From the NCBI GenBank assembly GCA_028748945.1, contig JAQTOL010000003.1, forward strand, positions 1 to 24,197: DNA of 24,197 nt, in the 5' to 3' direction. Below are positions 1 to 22,424 of the stretch, one piece after another (within the stretch, counting starts at the first letter, position 1; each line of letters begins with the position of its first letter). The DNA is from Paludibacter sp. Lineage in GTDB: Bacteria > Bacteroidota > Bacteroidia > Bacteroidales > Paludibacteraceae. The notes beneath the pieces are model-generated. The model worked only from the letters and a program-made list of their open reading frames with translations. It was not told where the DNA came from and searched no databases. A program made the position numbers and the translations under genes.

Positions 1-710
1 ATGAAGATGGAAAAACTAAACAGGATTTGGATTCTTTGCTTAAAGGTTGGATAGGTAGTGATAAACCAATTACGATTCTAGATTTATCAGGTGTACCAAT
101 AACTATATTAAATACTATAATTGGTGTATTGTTGCGGATAGTTTATGATGGTCTCTTTTGGGCGAGAAATCTTTCGCAAGGTGGTAAAGAAAGACCTCTA
201 TTGTTATTGATGGAAGAAGCTCACAATTATTTAAATTCAGAAGGAAGTGCATTATCAATAGTTCAAAGAATAGTAAAAGAAGGACGTAAATATGGAATAG
301 GTACAATGATTGTAAGTCAAAGACCTTCTGAAATAAATTCAACCATTTTATCACAGTGTGGGACATTTTTTGCTTTAAGATTGACAAATTCTACAGATAG
401 GAGCCATATTACAAGTGCAGTTTCTGATAATCTTGAAGGACTAACAGGTATGTTGCCAATTTTAAAAACTGGTGAGGCAATAATATTGGGTGAAGCAGTA
501 AAATTACCTATGCGAACAATTATCAAAGCACCTTCAAAAGATAGAAGGCCTGATAGTCAAGATCCTGTTGTATTTGATGAAATTGATACAGATGAATCAC
601 TTCGCCCAGGTGGTTGGGGAAATAAAATGGAACCAGAACCAAATTATGAAGAATTTGTGGAAGCATGGAGAGCTCAAAATCCAAAAGTCAAAAGAGTAAT
701 CAATAAATAA
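1..710 (+). CDS. HerA/DUF87-family ATPase, C-terminal part (5' end outside window)
   Basis: The reading frame is open from base 3, so this is the 3' part of a longer gene cut by the window edge; the TTG at 27 is internal. Numbering from that TTG, the visible part has a strand ending in DLSG (19-22), a hydrophobic Walker B strand with acidic end LLLLMEEAH (58-66), and the region around VSQRPSEI (96-103) typical of HerA/FtsK-like hexameric motors, where a Gln/Arg lies just after the sensor strand. The Walker A loop must lie upstream of the window. HerA proteins are ATP-driven DNA translocases that work with a nuclease partner, either NurA in end resection or SIR2, DUF4297 and similar effectors in phage defence. 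No NurA is visible here. The gene ends 9 bases before the KTSC gene, and predicted nucleases follow, suggesting one operon. Family assignment is firm; the biological role is inferred. Confidence 0.88.
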   Translation, partial: EDGKTKQDLDSLLKGWIGSDKPITILDLSGVPITILNTIIGVLLRIVYDGLFWARNLSQGGKERPLLLLMEEAHNYLNSEGSALSIVQRIVKEGRKYGIGTMIVSQRPSEINSTILSQCGTFFALRLTNSTDRSHITSAVSDNLEGLTGMLPILKTGEAIILGEAVKLPMRTIIKAPSKDRRPDSQDPVVFDEIDTDESLRPGGWGNKMEPEPNYEEFVEAWRAQNPKVKRVINK

Positions 711-719
711 AATAATATT

Positions 720-929
720 ATGGAAAGAAAACCTGTAAAATCGTCAAATATTGCAGCAATAGGCTATGACGATAGTTCGGCTACATTAGAAATTGAATTT
801 CTAAATGGATCAATCTATCAGTACTTTGATGTACCAGATCATATTTATAAGGAAATTATGGGTGCAGATTCACAAGGAAAGTATTTGGCAGCAAACATAA
901 AAGGTAATTTTAGATATTCTAAAGTGTAA
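720..929 (+). CDS. Stand-alone KTSC domain protein
   Basis: A 69-residue protein that is almost entirely one KTSC domain. The diagnostic central YxY motif appears as YQYFDVP (residues 34-40), preceded by LEIEFLNGS and followed by a C-terminal FRYSKV. KTSC was named after the C-terminal extension of some lysyl-tRNA synthetases; its function is unproven, with RNA binding proposed. The ATG at 720 lies 9 bases after the HerA-type stop, and the PIN-KTSC gene starts 8 bases after this stop, so co-transcription is very likely. It aligns without gaps to the C-terminal 62 residues of the next protein (30 of 62 identical), implying duplication or fusion. It could be an accessory subunit that binds the same ligand as the PIN-KTSC protein. 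Confidence 0.9.
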   Translation: MERKPVKSSNIAAIGYDDSSATLEIEFLNGSIYQYFDVPDHIYKEIMGADSQGKYLAANIKGNFRYSKV

Positions 930-937
930 ATGAAGGT

Positions 938-1909
938 ATGAATGTACTATTTATCGATACAAATATTTATCTGCGTTTTTTCGATGAAAATAGAAAAGAT
1001 TTAAAGAAGTTGTTAGATACTTTGCTTAAAGTTTCAAACAATATTTTTATTACTGAACAAATTGTAGCCGAAATAGAAAGAAATAAATTACAAGTGTTTA
1101 AACAATCAATTTCGAACTATACAAATAAATTAAAAATTGATTCTGTTGTTCTCCCAGAACATTTCGCTACAGACTTTAATAATATAGAGATTGGCAATTG
1201 GAACAAACATAGAAAAGCCTTAAAAAACGAAAATGAAAAACTATCAAAAGAGATTGATGAAATAATTATAAAAAATTTGGATTTAATCTCTAAATCATAT
1301 GATTCTGTAAGTAAGGGTTTGGAATTTTTATATTTAAATGCAATAAAGGCTAGCAATGGGGAAATTAGTAATGCAAGACTAAGACGTGAATTAGGTAATC
1401 CTCCTGGGAAACAGTTGGACTCATTAGGTGATCAAGTTACATGGGAACAATTTTTAAATAAGGCTTCAACTTATAATGAAGTTTGGATTATAACCAATGA
1501 CAGTGACTATTTAACAGAATACAAAGGAACTATATTTTTAAATTCTTACTTATATTCAGAGTTACGAAACCGAAATTCAACTTTAAAAATTAATTGTTTT
1601 ACTGACTTATTGAGTGGACTTGAATCGTATGGTAAAAAGAACAATATTAACGATTTGATTGATAAAAAGACGGTAAAGGAAATTCGTGAGGAAGAAATGC
1701 AATATAGAATTGTATTGGAATCAAGTAATTTAAAGTCTGTTAAATATGATTCTAACCAACATATTCTTGAAATAGAATTTTTAAATGAATCTCTATATCA
1801 ATATTTTGATGTTCCTGAAAATGTTTTTGAAAATTTATTAAGTTCAAGTTCTCCTGGCAGATTTTTTGAAAATGAAATTAAAGGTACATATCGTTATTCA
1901 AAAGTTTAA
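938..1909 (+). CDS. PIN-like ribonuclease (DUF4935-type) with C-terminal KTSC domain
   Basis: This 323-residue protein begins with a PIN-like fold: strand NVLFIDTNIYL with D7, then E45 in VAEIERN, D165 in LGDQVTWEQF, and D188/D190 in ITNDSDYL. These are the acidic positions expected to hold divalent metal in PIN nucleases, and the GDQ-W then TxDxD order resembles DUF4935 proteins. Residues about 85-160 form a helical, charged insertion. Residues 262-323 are a full KTSC domain (YQYFDVP at 287-293) ending in the same RYSKV as the preceding gene. PIN domains cut RNA; KTSC may bind RNA. The fusion therefore suggests an RNase with its own RNA-recognition module, which is inference. The ATG at 938 is 8 bases from the upstream stop, and the next gene starts 4 bases after this stop. 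Confidence 0.85.
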   Translation: MNVLFIDTNIYLRFFDENRKDLKKLLDTLLKVSNNIFITEQIVAEIERNKLQVFKQSISNYTNKLKIDSVVLPEHFATDFNNIEIGNWNKHRKALKNENEKLSKEIDEIIIKNLDLISKSYDSVSKGLEFLYLNAIKASNGEISNARLRRELGNPPGKQLDSLGDQVTWEQFLNKASTYNEVWIITNDSDYLTEYKGTIFLNSYLYSELRNRNSTLKINCFTDLLSGLESYGKKNNINDLIDKKTVKEIREEEMQYRIVLESSNLKSVKYDSNQHILEIEFLNESLYQYFDVPENVFENLLSSSSPGRFFENEIKGTYRYSKV

Positions 1910-1913
1910 ATAA

Positions 1914-2939
1914 ATGCTTCAACTTAATCAACAACTTAAACGTGTTGAAATTTCGAATTTCGAAATCGAGAACTCTATCGTTTTTAATTACTTTGATAAT
2001 CTCCCTGCATTCGAACGTGATGAGAAACTTCTTCGTGCCATATATATAGGAGTACTTGCCTTTATGGAAGATCGAATCTCTTCTTTCCTTTCAAAAACAA
2101 GCAATGAATTAGGGACGGAATTAGAAAGTCTGAAAATGATTTTCGAGATGAAGAAGGAATTATTTTATAAATCAACCATTAAAGGTGTATTAGCAGAAGA
2201 TGATATTGCTGAATTTTTAAATCAATACTTTTCAGATAAGCGATTAAAAGATAAAGCTATTTTAACCGGAAGTACTGCCGGTAATTTAGCACGTAATAAA
2301 ACAGGTGACATCCTTTGTGAAGTAGATGGTAATAGAGACTTGAAGATCGCAATTGAATGTAAGTTCGATAAAAGCGTTCGTTTGGGAGATATTGAAAACA
2401 AAGACATTTTTACAAGAAAATCGGATACTGCCTGGAGTCAGTTAATAGAAGCTCAAGCTAACAGGGATTCAAAAGTTAGTATCATAGTATTTGATATCTC
2501 GCTGGTAGAAAACTCGATATTAAAGAACTTTGACAATGTTGGTTATATTCCTGCAGTTGGCTTTGTTGCTATAATCAATTCACAAAAAGGAGATTATTCA
2601 AATTTGGCTATTGCTTATATGCTAGCCAGGGATATTGCTTTAAATGCAAAAGAAGTTGATTTAGATAAAGATTTATTAGCAATGATTGTAAATAGAGTTA
2701 TCAAAGATATTAATGAGATTCTATCTGTAAAATCTTTAGTGTTAAGTAATATAGAAAATAATAAAGCTATTCTGAAACAGCTTGAAAAATCAATGCTTCT
2801 TATGGAATTCAATCAAGAATACATGAAAAAATTCTTGAAAGAAGGTACACTTACTAAAAAAGATCTACTGGATTTTTATGTTGGCGAAGATGTGAAGGAT
2901 AAATATAAAGGAATTGAGAAGGAGATAAATGAAATGTGA
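1914..2939 (+). CDS. Predicted PD-(D/E)XK nuclease with coiled-coil flanks
   Basis: A 341-residue cytosolic protein with the signature of a restriction-endonuclease-like fold: E95 in a helix (GVLAEDDIAEF), D132 in KTGDILCEV, E148-x-K150 in the strand IAIECKF, and Q176 in AWSQLIEA, a plausible motif IV Gln. This order and spacing recalls the DUF2130/RmuC-like branch of the superfamily, but I cannot assign a named family. Charged helices at about 58-90 and 265-341 look like coiled coils that may mediate assembly. The ATG overlaps no gene but is only 4 bases after the PIN-KTSC stop, the tightest junction in the cluster. A role as DNA-cutting partner of the upstream HerA-type motor is inferred from adjacency. 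Confidence 0.72.
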   Translation: MLQLNQQLKRVEISNFEIENSIVFNYFDNLPAFERDEKLLRAIYIGVLAFMEDRISSFLSKTSNELGTELESLKMIFEMKKELFYKSTIKGVLAEDDIAEFLNQYFSDKRLKDKAILTGSTAGNLARNKTGDILCEVDGNRDLKIAIECKFDKSVRLGDIENKDIFTRKSDTAWSQLIEAQANRDSKVSIIVFDISLVENSILKNFDNVGYIPAVGFVAIINSQKGDYSNLAIAYMLARDIALNAKEVDLDKDLLAMIVNRVIKDINEILSVKSLVLSNIENNKAILKQLEKSMLLMEFNQEYMKKFLKEGTLTKKDLLDFYVGEDVKDKYKGIEKEINEM

Positions 2940-2961: not shown

Positions 2962-3252
2962 ATGGGACTTTACAAAACTGATAGTTGCTTTTTTACTAAA
3001 ATTGAAGTGATAAGTTGTGATGAAACAGATGGAAAACAATTGGATGGATATTATTATCGAATTATGTTCAATGATAAAGTTAGAGAAATCAGACTAAGTC
3101 ATAATGATGATTGGGAAAATGATAAATGGATAAAAAATTACGGAAATGATTTTTTAAACTTAATTGATGAAAAAGAAAGGGGGAGTTTTTTTCAATATGC
3201 AAAAACGTTGGATGAAGTAAAGGTGTATTTTAATGCCATAAATATAAAATAA
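2962..3252 (+). CDS. Small hypothetical protein in the nuclease cluster
   Basis: A 96-residue soluble protein I do not recognise. It has no signal peptide or membrane segment. The N-terminal half is predicted beta (FFTKIEVISCDE, YYYRIMFNDKVREIRLS) and the C-terminal half helical (DFLNLIDEKERGSFFQYA, DEVKVYFNAI), giving a compact alpha/beta protein rich in Asp, Lys and aromatic residues. The ATG at 2962 follows the nuclease stop by 22 bases with an A-rich leader, so it is probably the last gene of the operon. It could be an adaptor, immunity or inhibitor protein for the nucleases; nothing in the sequence decides between these. Confidence 0.65.
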   Translation: MGLYKTDSCFFTKIEVISCDETDGKQLDGYYYRIMFNDKVREIRLSHNDDWENDKWIKNYGNDFLNLIDEKERGSFFQYAKTLDEVKVYFNAINIK

Positions 3253-3344: not shown

Positions 3345-4028
3345 ATGACTATGAATATTGCTGTAAATACACTTTATTTAAATAAAGAATGGTTAGATAA
3401 AAGAGATTTAATTTTAAAGAGAGATAATTATACGTGTCAGGGTTGTCAAACATTTAATCCATCATTAGGGTCAGTTGAATTGTCTAATCCTATAGATAAT
3501 TCGCTTGAGATCCATTTTTATAGATCAACACCAGGAAGTAGTGTCTACACTATATCTTCCGAAAAATACAAATTGGATGTTGAAATAGATTTTGGTCGGA
3601 ACTGGATGGTTTTACCAGTATTACAAGTACACCATAAAAGATATATCCAAAATAAGAATCTTTGGGATTATGATGATACGGATTTAATTACTTTATGTAA
3701 GAACTGTCATAATAGTCTACATGATAATTTTGAAATACCGATATGTGATTCTAGCGGACTAATAATTAAAAATAAGAAATTCACTCCTAAAGATGAAGGT
3801 TGCGGAGGTTATCATACTTATGATCCTTGGACTTTCATTTATTTAAATAGGGAAAAAGAATATTTACTTAAAGATATAATAAAACCATTTATAAGATTAA
3901 TTGTAACAGAAGAAGAGGATTCCAGAATTGAAGAAATTAGAGAGATTGCAAAAACAATGTATCTTGATTTCTTTAAAAGATATATACCTAATTATACAAA
4001 TCAGTCATCTGCTAGCGCGGGTTTGTAA
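3345..4028 (+). CDS. HNH endonuclease domain protein
   Basis: A 227-residue protein with a zinc-supported HNH core. After RDLILKRDNYT come C31-x2-C34, then the catalytic-type LQVHHKRY with H96/H97, an Asn-containing stretch, and DLITLCKNCHNSLHD with C118-x2-C121, H122 and H126. HNH domains nick or cut DNA using one metal ion. An insertion of about 60 residues separates the first CxxC from the HH strand, longer than is usual in small HNH proteins, and a helical tail of about 100 residues follows. A second in-frame ATG lies two codons downstream (3351) and could be the true start. The gene lies 92 bases after the putative operon and may have its own promoter. Its last codons, encoding SASAGL, and the stop lie inside a dispersed intergenic hairpin repeat. 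Confidence 0.85.
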   Translation: MTMNIAVNTLYLNKEWLDKRDLILKRDNYTCQGCQTFNPSLGSVELSNPIDNSLEIHFYRSTPGSSVYTISSEKYKLDVEIDFGRNWMVLPVLQVHHKRYIQNKNLWDYDDTDLITLCKNCHNSLHDNFEIPICDSSGLIIKNKKFTPKDEGCGGYHTYDPWTFIYLNREKEYLLKDIIKPFIRLIVTEEEDSRIEEIREIAKTMYLDFFKRYIPNYTNQSSASAGL

Positions 4029-14780: not shown

Positions 14781-17700
14781 ATGAAAAAACTTATATCAAT
14801 TTTCGGTTTGATCCTATTGATCAATTTAGTAGCAGCGCAGGTGTCAAAAAAGGGCAATTTGGCCGATTTAGGAATATTTGATAAATGTCTGAAAACGACT
14901 AATGAAAAACCTAAATTTATAAAACGCACCCGAACGGTAGCTCAACAATCAAAGACTGTCAATGTTGCAACTGCCGGAACATTGAATAACCTGCTCACGA
15001 GTGATGAAAAGAGTACCATTAGCAATCTAACAATTACCGGAAATATAGATGCCCGTGATTTTAGAATCATGCGTGACAGCATGGCAAATTTAAAAGCTTT
15101 AGATATAAGTGCGGTAACCATTGTATCCTATACAGGATATGACGGAACCGGTTATTCCGGGTCAACTTATCCTGCCAATGAAATTCCGGAGAATGCATTT
15201 TATGCTTCGGGTTTTGGACCGGGAAATTTAAATTACGGGCTGGCTTCAATCGTGCTGCCAACCTCATTGACCTCAATTGGGAGAATGGCATTTACATTTT
15301 GTAGCTCATTGACTTCCGTTTCTATTTCGGCATCCGTAACACAAATTGGACTCGTAGCTTTTGTAGGTTGCAGTGCAACGATTAACGTTGATCAGGCTAA
15401 TCCTGATTATTCCAGTGTGGAAGGCGTTTTGTTTGATAAAGCAATGACGACACTGATACAATGTCCCCTTTCGATTACCGGGAACTACGACCTTCCTTCA
15501 ACTGTAGATTCAATAGCCGTTTATGGTTTTTGCTTTTGTGATAAATTATCTTCCATAAATATACCTTCTTCAGTGGTATCAATCGGGATATATGCATTTA
15601 CAAGTTGCAGCGGTATTATAAATGTAGCTGCAAACAATCCGAACTATACAAGTCAGGAAGGCGTATTGTTTAATAAATCATTGAAAACGCTTATTCAGTG
15701 TCCAACTTCGAAATCCGGAAGTTATATTATTCCTTCCTTAGTAGATACCTTAGGCGAAAATTCATTTTACAATTGCAGTTTAATGACTGCAGTTACAATG
15801 CCTTCTTCAGTTAGCTATATATCCGATTTATCATTCTATAATTGCTCAGGTTTAACTTCAATTACAGTAAACAGCCTGCCTGTTTCCTTAGGCTCAACAT
15901 ATAATGTCTTTTACAATGTAAACCAAAGTACATGTATCCTGAATGTACCTTATGGAACCAAGCCACTTTATCAGTCAGCCAGTGGTTGGAGCAGCTTTAG
16001 CAACATTGTAGAAAATACACATGGTTTTATTTTAGAAACGAATAAACTCATTCTGTCATCATTTGCCGGAAGTAATGCCAAAATGAAGATTTCTTCGAAT
16101 GATCCATGGGCAGTCAGTTCAAATCAGAGTTGGTTGAAAGTAATCCCTGAAAACGGATCGGGGAGCGATACCATTTCGGTAACTGCGGAAGCAAATTCTT
16201 CCACTGATAACCGCACGGGAATTGTTACAGTTTCAGCAGATGGAAGTCAGTCTCAAACCATCGAGGTGACACAATCAGGAATTCCAAGAACCTTAAATAT
16301 AACCGCCGGGGGGTTATCTGCAAGCATGACAGCTACAGAACTCAGCTCCGTGATTAACCTTAAACTCAGTGGAACAATTGATGCACGCGATTTTAAAACC
16401 ATGAGGGATAGGATGCCTAAGCTAACTTTCCTCGATTTAAGTGAGGTAAGCATTGCAGCGTATAACGGATCTGAAGGTACTGCCAGTTGGATTACAGTGT
16501 ATCCGGCCAATAAAATTCCAGAATATGCTTTTAGTCAGGGTAACATCCACCAAAATTATTCTTTAGCAACTGTAAAATTGCCATCGACAATTACAGTAAT
16601 TGGCGACTATGCTTTTTATTTATCCGGAGCATTAACTGATATTGTAATTCCAAATACGGTTACAAATATTGGAAATACTGCATTTGGATACTGTAATGCT
16701 TTGGTCAATGTAACTTTGCCCACCAACCTTTCCAGCATCGGGAACAGCACTTTTATGGGTTGTGGATTTTCAGGCATATTAATTCCAAATTCGGTGAAAA
16801 CCATCGGAACCAATGGATTTGGCTCATGCAAAAACCTTAAAAGCGTAGACATTCCTAATTCAGTAACCAGTATTTCAAATTCAGCATTTGAGAATTGTAT
16901 TACTTTGACAGAATTGACAATAGGGAATTCGGTAAAGACTATTGATAATTCGGCATTCAGAGCCTGTACAAGTTTAGCTAATGTGTTTATCCCGAATTCA
17001 GTAACCACATTATCAGGTTTTGCTTTTGCAACATGTTCTAATCTTAAAACAGTACATTTGTCTGATTCATTAGTTTCAATCGGATATTATTGTTTTTATC
17101 AATGTCCTAAACTTACAGATATAATTATTCCTTCCAGTGTAACAACAATAGGATATTGGGCATTTAATTCCTGTACAGGATTAAAATCCATAACTGTAAA
17201 TTCAGATATTCCCTTAGATGTAAGTTCTTCGGGTTCAGTATTCACCGGTGTGGACATGACAATATGTATCTTGAATGTGCCTTTTGGAGCTAAAAGTGCT
17301 TATGCTTCAGCTAATCAATGGAAAGATTTCAGTAATATTGTTGAAAATTCTCAGGGTTTTGCACTGGATTTATATTCAGTGAAACTTTCATATACCGAAG
17401 GAAGTATTTCAAAAGTTAAAGTCAGTTCAAATAATCAATGGATGGTAAGTTCAGATCAAAGTTGGCTTAAAGTCAGTCCAACAACAGGTACTGGTAATGA
17501 TTCGATTACCCTTAGCGCTGATGTAAATAGTTCCATTTTAAGTCGAAGAGCTACTGTGACTGTTACGGCTACCGGAGTAAATTCAAAAACCATTAACGTA
17601 GAACAGTTAGCAGCACCTAAGATTATAAACTTGACAGCAGGAGGATTAGCAGCAGCTTTAACGTCTGCTGAACTTAGTACTATATCCAATATGATTTTAA

Positions 17701-20700
17701 CCGGAACAATTGATGCCCGGGACTTTAAAACCATGCGTGATAATATGCCACAACTGGCTTATCTGGATATTAGTGCAGTAAATATAGTTGCTTATACCGG
17801 AAATAGTGGAACAATAGGGACATATACCAATACCTATTTAGCTAATGAAATTCCGCAGAGGGCATTTTCAACGACTTATGCCGGAAAATTAAGTTTGATA
17901 TCAGTGCTGTTGCCAACTTCAGTAATCTCAATTGGAAATTTTGCATTTCAATTTTGTAGTGGATTAACAACATTAGCAATTCCTGAAACGGTAACAGCTA
18001 TAGGTTATTATGCTTTTGAGTCATGTAGTTCACTGAATGACATAACGATGCCTGCTTCTTTAATAAAAATAGAATCCTATACCTTCTCGAAATGCAGCAA
18101 ACTTAAAACTATTAAAATACCGGAATTGGTTACAACAATAAGTTTTGATGCTTTCGAGTCATGTACCGCTCTGACTAATGTCACTATTCTAAACTCAGTG
18201 ACCTACATTGATATGAATGCTTTTCAGAACTGCAGCAGTTTAAAAGAAATAATTATCCCCAATTCGGTAATAACTCTCGGCTCGGATGTGTTTGCTAATT
18301 GTAGCCAGCTGACCAATGTTACGCTTTCTAATTCGATGCCCGTCATTGCAAGTAGTACTTTTTCTAACTGTACGGAACTGGTTACTATTAACATCCCAAA
18401 CGCAGTGAAAATAATTGATAGGGGTGCTTTTCGAGGTTGCACTAAGCTGGAAACAGTCAATTTTGGTATAGCTGTTCAAAAACTGAATTATGGTGTGTTT
18501 CAGTCTTGTACCTCATTAAAACAAATTACAATCCCGAATACAGTGACATTTATTGACAATAGTGTTTTTATGAATTGTACAACGCTTACCGATATTACAA
18601 TTCCCAATTCGGTCACTTCAATTGGGTCGGATGCATTTAATGGTTGTAAGGCATTAAAAGAGATCTCAATTCCTAATTCTATTTCTAAATTGAGTCTTCA
18701 GACTTTCGCTAATTGTAGTGGATTAAAGAAGGTTACTTTAGGAGATTCTCTAACTTCGATTGAAAGCAGTGCATTTTATTATTGTATAAGTTTGGATAGT
18801 ATTACTCTTCCCGGATCGCTAACAACCATTGGTAGTTCGGCATTTGAAAACTGTAGAGGACTTAAAAAAGTTTCATTCGGAAATTCTTTAAATTCAATAG
18901 GTTCGGGTGGGTTTATGAGTTGTTTTGCCTTAAACAATATAACATTGCCATTTTCGTTGAAATCAATTGGTTCTGAAGCTTTCGAATCATGTTCATCCTT
19001 AACTGAAATCATCCTTCCAAATGCGGTATCAACACTTGGTGAAGCTGCTTTCAGAAGCTGTGAAAATCTTGTTAAAGTGGTGAATTCTAATTCGGTGGTT
19101 CATATACCATCGATGACCTTTTCCGGTTGTACTAAACTGGCAAATATAAGTATTGGCTCATCGGTGGTTTCAATAGGTGAACTTGCTTTCGATTATTGTG
19201 TATCACTTGACAATTTGACCTTGTCGGCATCATTGCAAATAATAAATGGTTACGCTTTTAGATATTGTAGTTCTTTAGATACAATTTCAATACCAGGTTC
19301 AGTTACTTCGATTGGAACATCGGCTTTTGAATCATGTACCAACTTAAAAGCTATTTATGTAAACAGGATGATTCCGGTTGATATTAGCAATAATATGAAT
19401 GTTTTCAATGAAGTGGATAGAACCAACTGTATATTACATGTTCCACATCAAACCAAATCATTGTATGCAACTGCCAACCAATGGAAAGAATTTGTCAATA
19501 TAGTAGAAAATCCTTATGGTTTGGTATTGGATACCGATTCCTTGAATCTTTCTGTAAATGCCGGTAGTAGTGCTAAAGTAAATATAATATCAAATACATC
19601 TTGGACAGCAAGTTCAGATCAAAGCTGGCTCATTGTTACACCCAATTCGGGTTCAGGAACTGATTCTGTTATTCTGACTGCTGAAGCAAATTCGTTGCTC
19701 TCCACTCGAACTGCAATACTAACTGTACAGGCTTCGGGTATCGAAACTCAATATGTTACAATTACTCAGGATGCGGCTACAAAAACAGTAGCCGTTACTG
19801 CCGGTGGATTAAACAGTGCACTGACTCATGACGAACACACAGTGTTGAATCGATTGACAATTACAGGAACGCTCGATGCCCGAGATTTTAAATTTATGAG
19901 AGACTCTATCCCAAATCTGACTTACCTGGATATAAGTCAAACAACGATTAATGCATACACAGGTTCAAACGGTACAGTTGGTTCCTATACGATTAACTAT
20001 CCGGCTGCTACAATTCCGCAAAATGCTTTTGATAATGGCTATTATTCTTCAAAAATTGCCTTAAAATCAATTATATTGCCTAATTCAATAAGCTCAATTG
20101 GAACATACGCATTTCAGTATTGTTTTAAACTTGACAGTATTGCTATTCCGAATTCTGTAACTTCAATTGGAGATTTTGCATTTGATTATTGTAACAATTT
20201 GAAAAGTGTCAAACTCTCCAATTCCCTTACAACAATTGGCAGGGTGTTTAGTAATTGCAGCAGTCTCACAAAAATAGTTATTCCAAATTCTGTTACATCA
20301 TTAACAGGAAGTACTTTTTCTTATTGTAGCAGATTAAAAGATGTAAGCTTTAGTAACTCGTTGACTAGTATTGGAAGTAATGCATTTAATAATTGCACCG
20401 GAATAACTGACATATCAATTCCTAATTCAGTTACGTTGATAGACAGTTATGCATTTATGAATTGTACTGGATTGACCAACCTAATAATAGGGAGTAAAGT
20501 TAATACAATTGGAATGAGTGCATTTTCAAATTGCAGCAGTTTGGCAGGACTTGTTCTGCCTAAATCGCTACAAACAATTGGTGATTATGCTTTTCAAGCT
20601 TGCAACTTATTACCTGTTGTCACGATACCGGAAAATGTGGGTTCTATTGGTTCTTATGCATTTAGTTGTAGTGGACTAAAATCAATTTTATCAGCGAACC

Positions 20701-22424
20701 CAACACCTCTTGTTATGAGTACTTATGGAGTTTTCTCTGCTGTTAACAAATCAACCTGTACCCTATATGTGCCTACTGGTTCTAAATCCTTATATCAGAA
20801 TACTGCTCAATGGAAAGATTTTAGTAATATTTCGGAGGAATTCGGATTTATGTTATCCAATGATACTGTAAGAATCCTTTCGGGAGAAAGTATAACCATA
20901 AACATTCCAACCACAAAAACGTTTACTGCAGTTTCTGATCAACCATGGTTAAAAACAAGTACAGTTGCTGGCATCAACAACACACAGATAGTGTTGGCCG
21001 GAGATGTAAATCCTGATTTGTTCTTACGAACAGCACTTGTAAAATTTAGTTTCGAAAATGGACCATCTCAAATTATTACAGTTATTCAGAGTGGAACACC
21101 AAAAACTGTGACTGTTAGTTCAGGAGGGTTGCAAACCAGTCTTACTAAACAAGAATTACTTACTGTTTCGAATCTGATCCTGACTGGAACTATTGATGCC
21201 CGCGATTTCAGAGTTATGCGCGATAGTATGCCGCAGTTGGCTGATATTGACATGAAAGATGTTAGCATTACTGCTTATTCCGGATCGGAAGGAACCAATT
21301 CAAGTATCAGTTCATATCCGGCTAATGCAACACCTATCAATGCATTTTATAAAACCTATTCAGGAGTTGGGAAAACCACATTGGCTTCAGTTATTCTTCC
21401 AACAAATATTACTTCCATTGGACAATCCAGTTTTGCTTATGCCATTGGATTGTCATCAATAGTTATTCCTGACCAGGTGACTTTGATAGGTATGACTGCT
21501 TTTGCATATTGTGGATTAAAAGAGTTGACAATAGGGAGTTCAGTAACCAATATAGGATTTGAAGCATTTCTAGCCTGTAATAAGTTGGCAGGTGTTGCTA
21601 TTCCTAATGCTGTGAAAACTATCGAGGCAGAAGCATTCAGCAGCTGTAGAGACTTAAAATGGGTTACTTTCCCCGATGGTCTGACAACAATAAACAGCAA
21701 AGCTTTTATGTTTTGCATTAGTCTGGATTCTGTTAATCTTCCAAATACGATAACAACTTTTGGCCCTGATATTTTTGGATTTTGCTATGCTTTGAAAAAA
21801 GCGAATATCCCTAACACTATTTCTGAATTAAAATCTGGGACATTCTATAGTTGTACGTCATTAAAAGAAATTTCAATCCCGGCTTCAGTTACTAAAATTG
21901 GAAACAGAGCGTTAGGAAAATGTACAGTATTTACAACAATTAATATACCGGCAACAGTTACCGGAATTGAGTATGGTGCATTCGAATTTTGTACAGGATT
22001 GACATCTGTTTATGCATACCAAATAACTCCTATTGATTTATCAGCTTCATATTATGCAACCGTGTTTAATAACGTTAATAAGACTAATTGCAAACTATAT
22101 GTTCCAATCGGTACAAAAGCACTATACGCTGCAGCAGTTGAATGGAAAGACTTTACTAACATCATTGAAATGACAACTGCTGTACCTACTTTATCCGAAT
22201 CGAATATCAAGATTTATCCAAATCCGGCGACAGACAAATTTAGCATTTCAGGATTAGATGAAACTGCCCAATTGACAATAACGGATTTGAGTGGAAAAGT
22301 GTTAGTATGCAAACAAATTGCCGGTAAAAACACAGTTTCAGTTATGGAATTGCCGAAGGGAATATATATTGTTCGGATTATAACTGCTAACGGTACTTTC
22401 GAACGAAAACTGGAAAAGAAATAA
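14781..22424 (+). CDS. Giant BspA-type LRR_5/BACON surface protein with T9SS sorting domain
   Basis: A 2547-residue protein with signal peptide MKKLISIFGLILLINLVAAQ. It is built from five modules. Each starts with a header carrying IDARDFxxMRD (or a close variant) then YPAN (headers near 59, 504, 949, 1669 and 2109), continues as LRR_5 repeats of 23 residues (consensus L..I.IPNSVTSIG..AF.NC), and closes with a cap such as CILNVP...QWKDFSNI. Four BACON domains link modules (about 414-500, 858-943, 1579-1664, 2021-2103). Module 3 holds 21 uninterrupted repeats (1037-1519), about twice as many as the others. Module 1 has two NPxY...GVLFxK segments typical of BspA proteins. Residues 2474-2547 (IKIYPNPATDK to the end) are a T9SS type A domain. 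BspA relatives bind host or matrix proteins; BACON domains are thought to bind glycans or mucin. The role here is therefore inferred to be adhesion. Confidence 0.93.
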   Translation: MKKLISIFGLILLINLVAAQVSKKGNLADLGIFDKCLKTTNEKPKFIKRTRTVAQQSKTVNVATAGTLNNLLTSDEKSTISNLTITGNIDARDFRIMRDSMANLKALDISAVTIVSYTGYDGTGYSGSTYPANEIPENAFYASGFGPGNLNYGLASIVLPTSLTSIGRMAFTFCSSLTSVSISASVTQIGLVAFVGCSATINVDQANPDYSSVEGVLFDKAMTTLIQCPLSITGNYDLPSTVDSIAVYGFCFCDKLSSINIPSSVVSIGIYAFTSCSGIINVAANNPNYTSQEGVLFNKSLKTLIQCPTSKSGSYIIPSLVDTLGENSFYNCSLMTAVTMPSSVSYISDLSFYNCSGLTSITVNSLPVSLGSTYNVFYNVNQSTCILNVPYGTKPLYQSASGWSSFSNIVENTHGFILETNKLILSSFAGSNAKMKISSNDPWAVSSNQSWLKVIPENGSGSDTISVTAEANSSTDNRTGIVTVSADGSQSQTIEVTQSGIPRTLNITAGGLSASMTATELSSVINLKLSGTIDARDFKTMRDRMPKLTFLDLSEVSIAAYNGSEGTASWITVYPANKIPEYAFSQGNIHQNYSLATVKLPSTITVIGDYAFYLSGALTDIVIPNTVTNIGNTAFGYCNALVNVTLPTNLSSIGNSTFMGCGFSGILIPNSVKTIGTNGFGSCKNLKSVDIPNSVTSISNSAFENCITLTELTIGNSVKTIDNSAFRACTSLANVFIPNSVTTLSGFAFATCSNLKTVHLSDSLVSIGYYCFYQCPKLTDIIIPSSVTTIGYWAFNSCTGLKSITVNSDIPLDVSSSGSVFTGVDMTICILNVPFGAKSAYASANQWKDFSNIVENSQGFALDLYSVKLSYTEGSISKVKVSSNNQWMVSSDQSWLKVSPTTGTGNDSITLSADVNSSILSRRATVTVTATGVNSKTINVEQLAAPKIINLTAGGLAAALTSAELSTISNMILTGTIDARDFKTMRDNMPQLAYLDISAVNIVAYTGNSGTIGTYTNTYLANEIPQRAFSTTYAGKLSLISVLLPTSVISIGNFAFQFCSGLTTLAIPETVTAIGYYAFESCSSLNDITMPASLIKIESYTFSKCSKLKTIKIPELVTTISFDAFESCTALTNVTILNSVTYIDMNAFQNCSSLKEIIIPNSVITLGSDVFANCSQLTNVTLSNSMPVIASSTFSNCTELVTINIPNAVKIIDRGAFRGCTKLETVNFGIAVQKLNYGVFQSCTSLKQITIPNTVTFIDNSVFMNCTTLTDITIPNSVTSIGSDAFNGCKALKEISIPNSISKLSLQTFANCSGLKKVTLGDSLTSIESSAFYYCISLDSITLPGSLTTIGSSAFENCRGLKKVSFGNSLNSIGSGGFMSCFALNNITLPFSLKSIGSEAFESCSSLTEIILPNAVSTLGEAAFRSCENLVKVVNSNSVVHIPSMTFSGCTKLANISIGSSVVSIGELAFDYCVSLDNLTLSASLQIINGYAFRYCSSLDTISIPGSVTSIGTSAFESCTNLKAIYVNRMIPVDISNNMNVFNEVDRTNCILHVPHQTKSLYATANQWKEFVNIVENPYGLVLDTDSLNLSVNAGSSAKVNIISNTSWTASSDQSWLIVTPNSGSGTDSVILTAEANSLLSTRTAILTVQASGIETQYVTITQDAATKTVAVTAGGLNSALTHDEHTVLNRLTITGTLDARDFKFMRDSIPNLTYLDISQTTINAYTGSNGTVGSYTINYPAATIPQNAFDNGYYSSKIALKSIILPNSISSIGTYAFQYCFKLDSIAIPNSVTSIGDFAFDYCNNLKSVKLSNSLTTIGRVFSNCSSLTKIVIPNSVTSLTGSTFSYCSRLKDVSFSNSLTSIGSNAFNNCTGITDISIPNSVTLIDSYAFMNCTGLTNLIIGSKVNTIGMSAFSNCSSLAGLVLPKSLQTIGDYAFQACNLLPVVTIPENVGSIGSYAFSCSGLKSILSANPTPLVMSTYGVFSAVNKSTCTLYVPTGSKSLYQNTAQWKDFSNISEEFGFMLSNDTVRILSGESITINIPTTKTFTAVSDQPWLKTSTVAGINNTQIVLAGDVNPDLFLRTALVKFSFENGPSQIITVIQSGTPKTVTVSSGGLQTSLTKQELLTVSNLILTGTIDARDFRVMRDSMPQLADIDMKDVSITAYSGSEGTNSSISSYPANATPINAFYKTYSGVGKTTLASVILPTNITSIGQSSFAYAIGLSSIVIPDQVTLIGMTAFAYCGLKELTIGSSVTNIGFEAFLACNKLAGVAIPNAVKTIEAEAFSSCRDLKWVTFPDGLTTINSKAFMFCISLDSVNLPNTITTFGPDIFGFCYALKKANIPNTISELKSGTFYSCTSLKEISIPASVTKIGNRALGKCTVFTTINIPATVTGIEYGAFEFCTGLTSVYAYQITPIDLSASYYATVFNNVNKTNCKLYVPIGTKALYAAAVEWKDFTNIIEMTTAVPTLSESNIKIYPNPATDKFSISGLDETAQLTITDLSGKVLVCKQIAGKNTVSVMELPKGIYIVRIITANGTFERKLEKK

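What the first reader, a model, noticed from the sequence alone, without database searches (positions are those of the whole stretch)
1..2939. HerA-type motor with a KTSC/PIN-KTSC pair and a PD-(D/E)XK nuclease: candidate undescribed defence operon
Seen: four genes spaced 9, 8 and 4 bases apart encode a HerA/DUF87 ATPase, a KTSC protein, a PIN-KTSC fusion and a predicted PD-(D/E)XK nuclease. Known: HerA motors form defence complexes with SIR2, DUF4297 or other nucleases. Inference: this operon joins a DNA motor, a DNA nuclease and an RNase with an RNA-binding-like module, so phage DNA sensing might trigger both DNA and RNA cleavage. I do not know a named system with this exact gene set.
Basis: partly seen in the sequence, partly recalled or inferred. 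Interest (0 to 1): 0.75.

Follow-up and report, generated by a model that had tools for sequence, protein, structure and literature searches.

The report
Modular defence cassette sharing one nuclease
The stretch is the end of a known type of anti-phage gene set (SIR2-HerA with its small KTSC partner, cut by the contig edge) into which a second putative toxin-like gene has been slotted just before an unnamed nuclease-like gene that recurs at the end of several different anti-phage gene sets.

Summary
In detail: four same-strand genes, spaced 9, 8 and 4 nt. HerA (5'-cut by the contig start) plus KTSC is not a new pair: it matches the HerA of the solved SIR2/HerA complex, whose chain itself ends in a KTSC domain, and all 29 loci with a HerA gene among 72 relatives have SIR2 directly upstream.

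The new part is the last gene, NUC (341 aa), a PD-(D/E)XK-like protein with no PADLOC or Pfam match. It is the constant last gene behind six kinds of module (SIR2-HerA, OLD-like, PrrC-like, PDC-S46, SMC-like, c12/c13). Partner type is close to random on the NUC tree. NUC can be 91-94% identical in DNA where the genes before it are unrelated, and one island frame carries three different cassettes before NUC.

The window fits this. In nine relatives the HerA-KTSC DNA abuts NUC; here 984 nt (PIN-KTSC) lie between. PIN and NUC active sites are conserved. The full window order was seen nowhere else. NUC follows only 2 of 14 randomly sampled HerA loci, and no activity was tested; it could also be mainly an exchange anchor. 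New variant of a known kind.

The parts
3..710 (+). C-terminal 235 aa of HerA ATPase (Walker B region by my reading; the Walker A part lies beyond the contig edge)
   Evidence: 9.1e-81 to chain 8wiv_A
720..929 (+). Stand-alone KTSC protein, split form of the KTSC tail of the solved HerA
   Evidence: 1.7e-17 to 8wiv_A residues 629-696
930..1913 (+). 984-nt inserted segment, absent from nine relatives in which HerA-KTSC abuts NUC
938..1909 (+). PIN-KTSC fusion; D7, E45, D165, D188, D190 invariant in 61 sequences; KTSC domain at residues 261-318
1914..2939 (+). NUC, PD-(D/E)XK-like protein with E95, D132, E148, K150; constant last gene of several kinds of defence module
2962..3252 (+). ORF5, 96 aa, unknown; a homologue is the second gene downstream of NUC in one other genome of the genus (L075, same contig as L006); membership uncertain

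Best explanation
The window holds the right half of a horizontally exchanged, modular anti-phage cassette. Module 1 is a SIR2-HerA-KTSC system (SIR2 and the HerA N-terminus are inferred to lie beyond the contig edge). Module 2 is a PIN-KTSC gene inserted exactly between KTSC and the last gene. The last gene, NUC, is a PD-(D/E)XK-like protein kept as a shared terminal gene for whichever module precedes it. Shown by sequence: identities, conserved active-site residues, gene order, empty-site comparison, partner exchange. Inferred: the SIR2/HerA complex detects infection and depletes NAD+; PIN cuts RNA as a second arrest arm; the KTSC (elsewhere WYL-like) small domains bind nucleic acid and dock the effector; NUC adds a DNA-cutting arm common to the modules.
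For: HerA and KTSC match one solved chain, 8wiv_A, of the SIR2/HerA entries. All 29 loci with a HerA gene among 72 NUC loci have SIR2 directly upstream and KTSC directly downstream or fused. SIR2-HerA-KTSC-NUC is also on a Paracoccus plasmid and near a tyrosine integrase on an IMG/VR contig. An ATPase module precedes NUC in 64 of 72 loci; 60 of 70 co-oriented upstream gaps are within 20 nt, median 2. Partner type on the NUC tree needs 37 changes against a shuffled mean of 40.2. NUC DNA is 94.2% identical between a HerA and a PrrC-like locus, the match starting 6-12 nt inside the gene; the same 4.7-kb left frame carries different cassettes before NUC. Empty site: DNA matching window 1-930 ends 1-6 nt before NUC in nine loci; L034 against L038 shows the same for another insert. 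Three other contigs apparently carry PIN-KTSC and NUC together.
Against: No SIR2 was found in the window's own assembly (85% complete). L008 has only a 208-aa HerA piece before KTSC and NUC and no SIR2 next to it. NUC follows only 2 of 14 HerA loci in a random sample, so the core does not need it. PIN-KTSC is rare: none with both domains in 394 phylum and 392 order genomes besides the window's own. The NUC model is moderate (pLDDT 77, pTM 0.48), with no Foldseek hit under 0.001. Partner labels are not wholly random: HerA clusters somewhat on the tree (16 changes, mean 21.2). No activity was measured. The free exchange of partners argues against a specific NUC-partner interface.
Confidence: 0.6

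Rival explanations
1. NUC is mainly an exchange anchor or exchange enzyme: a conserved 1-kb gene at the right border gives homology (or makes a cut) by which new defence cassettes replace old ones; any anti-phage role is secondary.
For: In 37 of 47 locus pairs with NUC DNA at 85% or more the match stops near both ends of NUC; cassettes swap between a conserved left frame and NUC; structural neighbours include Holliday junction resolvases at low Z, 6.3-6.2.
Against: Strong protein-level conservation and near-overlapping, co-oriented coupling to each partner suggest co-expression for function; no terminal repeats or border motif seen in the loci looked at.
Confidence: 0.15
2. One reading: one dedicated complex in which the HerA motor senses phage DNA and triggers both the PIN RNase and the nuclease.
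For: Tight spacing in the window; conserved catalytic residues.
Against: The full order is in 0 of 72 NUC loci; PIN-KTSC and HerA homologue lists share no contig length (lists of 103 and the best 120 of 7135 only); HerA-KTSC stands with SIR2 in relatives.
Confidence: 0.12
3. NUC is a regulator (brake or trigger) that restrains or licenses the effector before it, like an antitoxin or a sensor of foreign DNA ends, rather than the killer.
For: Several partner classes carry an effector of their own (SIR2, OLD-like Toprim, PrrC-like); NUC is well conserved whatever the partner.
Against: Invariant E-D-ExK residues point to catalysis; NUC is not seen after 12 of 14 sampled HerA loci (one of these, L132, ends at a contig edge), so no brake is needed there.
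Confidence: 0.1

Closest known systems
SIR2-HerA anti-phage system (Nezha); solved entries 8wiv, 8wld and others
   Same: HerA fragment 9.1e-81 and KTSC 1.7e-17 to the same chain; the SIR2 of one relative, L009, 5.2e-93 to 8w9l
   Different: KTSC is a separate gene here; SIR2 not visible (contig edge); PIN-KTSC and NUC follow
HerA + KTSC + endoDNase variant mentioned in PMC9503650 (passage read)
   Same: HerA-like ATPase, KTSC protein, DNA nuclease
   Different: [quoted passage not shown] here NUC co-occurs with SIR2 in 29 of 29 loci with a HerA gene. Theirs may be another nuclease
PD-(D/E)XK nucleases (Bax1, Can2, VC1899, McrC, PaqCI, Hjc; that these belong to the superfamily is recalled)
   Different: Long N- and C-terminal helical parts; no sequence match in the PDB at E 10
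OLD-like, PrrC-like (PADLOC PDC-S06) and PDC-S46 defence ATPases
   Same: They stand in the module before NUC in 14, 13 and 3 of 72 loci; each label rests on one representative scanned
   Different: Not in the window; NUC has no match in PADLOC-DB
VapC-type PIN proteins
   Different: Fused to KTSC (in some relatives also WYL), 323 aa, no antitoxin gene recognised

Membership tests
SIR2-HerA (Nezha) | HerA of the system's kind | tested here: met
SIR2-HerA (Nezha) | SIR2 gene next to HerA | tested here: inconclusive
   window starts inside HerA; no SIR2 in own assembly; 29 of 29 relatives with a HerA gene have it
SIR2-HerA (Nezha) | Walker A and B of HerA | tested here: inconclusive
   Walker B region LLLLMEEAH present by my reading; Walker A part missing
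SIR2-HerA (Nezha) | NAD+ hydrolysis on infection | not testable with these tools
   no assay; described in PMC11559045 (passages)
PD-(D/E)XK nuclease superfamily (NUC) | E...D...ExK residues conserved | tested here: met
   invariant in 79 sequences
PD-(D/E)XK nuclease superfamily (NUC) | alpha-beta-beta-beta-alpha-beta core | tested here: met
   [not shown]
PIN domain RNases | PIN fold with conserved acidic residues | tested here: met
PIN domain RNases | RNA cleavage | not testable with these tools
HerA-DUF4297 or HerA-NurA | partner nuclease of the DUF4297 or NurA family | tested here: inconclusive
   NUC matches neither in Pfam or PADLOC, but the gene upstream of HerA is beyond the contig edge
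KTSC domain | match above Pfam cut-off | tested here: met
   [not shown]

The most novel reading that the evidence does not exclude
A class of modular immune operon not described in the papers searched: one highly conserved PD-(D/E)XK nuclease is the shared executor of many unrelated sensors/effectors (SIR2-HerA, OLD-like, PrrC-like, SMC-like ATPases, PIN, a reverse transcriptase), linked to them by interchangeable small KTSC, WYL-like or c4/c8 adaptor proteins, with a slot before the nuclease gene into which new modules are inserted or swapped.
Probability: 0.35. Interest if true: 0.8.

Novelty: new variant of a known kind. Interest (0 to 1): 0.62.

Why it matters
It points to an unnamed nuclease-like family (2455 homologues at E 0.001) that the defence library searched here does not model, although it closes operons of several systems that the library does model. 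If NUC contributes to protection, tests of SIR2-HerA, OLD-like or PrrC-like systems cloned without it may have missed a component; if it is an exchange anchor, it shows how defence cassettes are swapped gene by gene. Both readings can be tested with one catalytic mutant in several cassettes.

Tried and rejected
PIN-KTSC as the conserved heart of the operon: rejected, since it has 103 homologues against 2455 for NUC and none with both domains in the sampled genomes. Of 61 PADLOC-scanned PIN homologues, 4 match PDC-S34 and 5 an Effector model; the window's own matches none. PIN relatives sit on 61 plasmid records, only one place covering 80% of the query. NUC or PIN-KTSC as phage genes: NUC has no match in 50,697 phage records at E 0.01; single-sequence scans of IMG/VR gave none for either; alignment scans gave 1 NUC locus and 3 distant or partial PIN loci, the latter without NUC. 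Exchange by terminal repeats: no repeat or motif stood out in the loci looked at. KTSC and the 72-aa c4 protein as one family: weak (hhalign probability 54%), left open. Contig-length coincidences at 1987 and 2394 nt between the NUC and PIN lists were set aside as likely chance; only lengths of 5000 or more were tested. Several VIA rows (dynein, designed bundles and the like) match only the N-terminal helices and were passed over. A paper on the solved complex was not found. Of 23 papers holding 'SIR2-HerA' (20 listed) I read passages of one; a look-up in PMC12198126 failed and was not repeated.

Limits of counts. The 73 loci come from a pattern scan that finds close relatives of the window's NUC. 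L059, L064 and L075 (cut NUC) were left out of the tree. Gene calls in relatives are my own longest-ORF calls; cluster labels rest on one scanned representative each, and HsdM, HsdS, methylase (c10, c21, c16, c17) and membrane-protein (c13) labels are my reading of the letters, not scanned. In one search cluster c95 was labelled as a partner beside the ATPases; one search shows a reverse transcriptase.
Full report
Observation. The four genes are present as described: HerA C-terminal fragment 3-710, KTSC 720-929, PIN-KTSC 938-1909, NUC 1914-2939, all +, gaps 9, 8 and 4 nt. The window begins at the first base of its contig, so HerA is cut and nothing upstream can be read. Domain assignments by HMM are clear for HerA, KTSC and PIN_8. 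NUC has no Pfam or PADLOC match at E 1 and only a sub-cut-off NCBIfam match (0.027).

HerA and KTSC belong to a known system. The window's HerA fragment matches chain 8wiv_A at 9.1e-81, far ahead of the next (1.9e-35). The window's KTSC matches residues 629-696 of that same 696-aa chain at 1.7e-17. Entries of this sequence include 8wld, titled SIR2/HerA antiphage complex. The SIR2 of a close relative (L009, whose HerA is 91% identical to the window's) matches 8w9l at 5.2e-93. So HerA + KTSC here is the split form of a HerA with a KTSC tail; fused forms also occur (L023; P0224 and P0225). In PMC11559045 (passages) Nezha is described as SIR2 plus HerA acting through NAD+ depletion.

Gene neighbourhoods. 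A scan of the species-genome collection for NUC gave 73 loci, 72 usable. Of these, 29 hold a HerA gene; all 29 have SIR2 directly upstream and KTSC directly downstream, or fused in L023. In three a further module lies between KTSC and NUC (L034, L047, L078). L008 has only a 208-aa HerA piece with no SIR2 beside it. Other loci have before NUC an OLD-like ATPase (14 in all, 2 of them with HerA), a PrrC-like AAA_13 ATPase (PADLOC PDC-S06; 13), c12/c13 (a protein weakly like LmuB/PtuA ATPases plus a putative membrane protein; 6, one with HerA), PDC-S46 (3) or an SMC-like ATPase (2); two also have a reverse transcriptase (L057, L065; scanned in L057). An ATPase module precedes NUC in 64 of 72, and a small protein (KTSC, c4, c8 or WYL-like) in 60 of 72; several exceptions lie at contig edges. 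The gene before NUC is co-oriented in 70 of the 71 loci that have one, median gap 2 nt, 60 of 70 within 20 nt. Eight loci have HsdM- or HsdS-like genes (my reading) in the fetched stretch. By record title most hosts are Bacteroidota, with single loci or pairs in Ignavibacteria, Cloacimonadota, Aminicenantes, Parcubacteria and Candidatus Zapsychrus/Velamenicoccus. A Paracoccus plasmid has SIR2-HerA-KTSC-NUC in this order, and an IMG/VR contig carries the same four genes about 0.5 kb from a tyrosine integrase.

Counter-sample. In 394 genomes of the window's phylum besides its own (unnamed; Bacteroidota by inference) this HerA type (E 1e-60) is found at 14 loci in 13 genomes. SIR2 is next upstream in 12 of 14; KTSC follows in 12 of 14 at tblastn 2e-8 or better; NUC follows in 2 of 14, one of which has the contig length of L056; one locus (L132) ends at a contig edge. 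NUC is therefore an accessory of SIR2-HerA, not its core. PIN-KTSC with both domains was found in no other genome of 394 (phylum) or 392 (order, E 1e-12), only the best candidates of each genome being scored.

Exchange of modules. On a tree of 70 NUC proteins the partner label needs 37 changes (shuffled mean 40.2, as low in 12 of 200); HerA clusters somewhat (16 changes, mean 21.2, 3 of 500 as low). The tree is a quick one, 34 of 67 inner branches open. At DNA level NUC is 94.2% identical between L023 (SIR2-HerA) and L072 (PrrC-like), the match beginning 6-12 nt inside NUC and ending 13 nt before its end. Of 47 pairs with NUC at 85% or more, the match continues 200 nt or more to the left in 7 and 100 nt or more to the right in 6. 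L007 and L018 share 4.7 kb of left frame (87.7%) and NUC (91.5%), but SIR2-HerA-KTSC is replaced by WYL-like-KTSC-c8-PrrC-like. L007 and L010 share frame (90.4%) and NUC (93.0%), but their SIR2, HerA and KTSC are only 34, 39 and 46% identical as proteins. L026 and L028 share both flanks with a PrrC-like against an OLD-like cassette. No border repeats stood out; cassettes seem to bring their own first few NUC codons, an impression I did not quantify.

The window as an insertion. In nine loci (L007, L009, L011, L019, L023, L033, L042, L045, L048) DNA matching window 1-930 (75-80%) ends 1-6 nt before NUC; in the window 984 nt lie between. In seven of the nine the last 121-146 nt before NUC also align to the KTSC end of PIN-KTSC (window from 1766-1794); in L045 and L048 only 30 nt do. 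The insert thus appears to keep a KTSC-NUC junction. L034 against L038 shows the same event with another insert: 3.2 kb of SIR2-HerA-KTSC (81%) abuts NUC in L038 and is followed by 3.7 kb of c4-c12-c13 in L034. Elsewhere PIN-KTSC apparently lies with NUC: contig lengths 9845, 14688 and 85534 appear in both homologue lists; with lengths of 5000 or more jittered by up to 5%, three or more matches came up in 8 of 20,000 trials. This rests on equal lengths, not on reading those contigs. The HerA list shares no length with the PIN list, but lists only the best 120 of 7135.

Print record. KTSC with HerA occurs in 2 papers of the library, 'KTSC domain' in 5, KTSC with defense and nuclease in 3. [quoted passage not shown] The loci here have SIR2 and NUC together; their endoDNase may be another family. 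I found no description of NUC, but it has no name to search by.

Mechanism. Best supported: SIR2-HerA-KTSC is an infection-triggered NADase complex (from the literature); PIN-KTSC is a second, probably RNA-cutting arm; NUC adds DNA cleavage shared by the modules. The last two are inferred from active-site residues and operon place. That NUC keeps its sequence while partners change suggests that it acts on a constant target or through a constant adaptor, or that it is kept as an exchange anchor; these cannot be told apart here.

Noticed in passing
window 2962-3252: 96-aa ORF after NUC with a homologue downstream of NUC in one other genome of the genus (L075, same contig as L006); no family match.
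   Followed up: partly
window 3345-4028: 227-aa HNH protein (Pfam HNH 0.0013, below cut-off; PHROG HNH 1.1e-13) just right of the operon, a possible further defence gene.
   Followed up: no
window 14781-22424: 2547-aa protein with many leucine-rich-like repeats and a C-terminal sorting-like tail (by reading only), unrelated to the finding.
   Followed up: no
L057 6240-7985, L065 6287-7987: Reverse transcriptase (RVT_1, scanned in L057; L065 by similarity) directly before NUC, with an OLD-like ATPase and HsdM/HsdS-like genes nearby: possible RT-based defence module.
   Followed up: partly
L008 3052-4683; also L013, L015, L016, L021, L058: 543-617-aa proteins with a C-terminal KTSC domain (HATPase_c_4 in the one scanned, L008) before KTSC and NUC: a further module type.
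   Followed up: partly
L018 3314-4924, L007 114-4695: Conserved methylase-like frame (c16-c17, by reading) left of exchanged cassettes; seems a restriction-modification island with a swap slot.
   Followed up: partly
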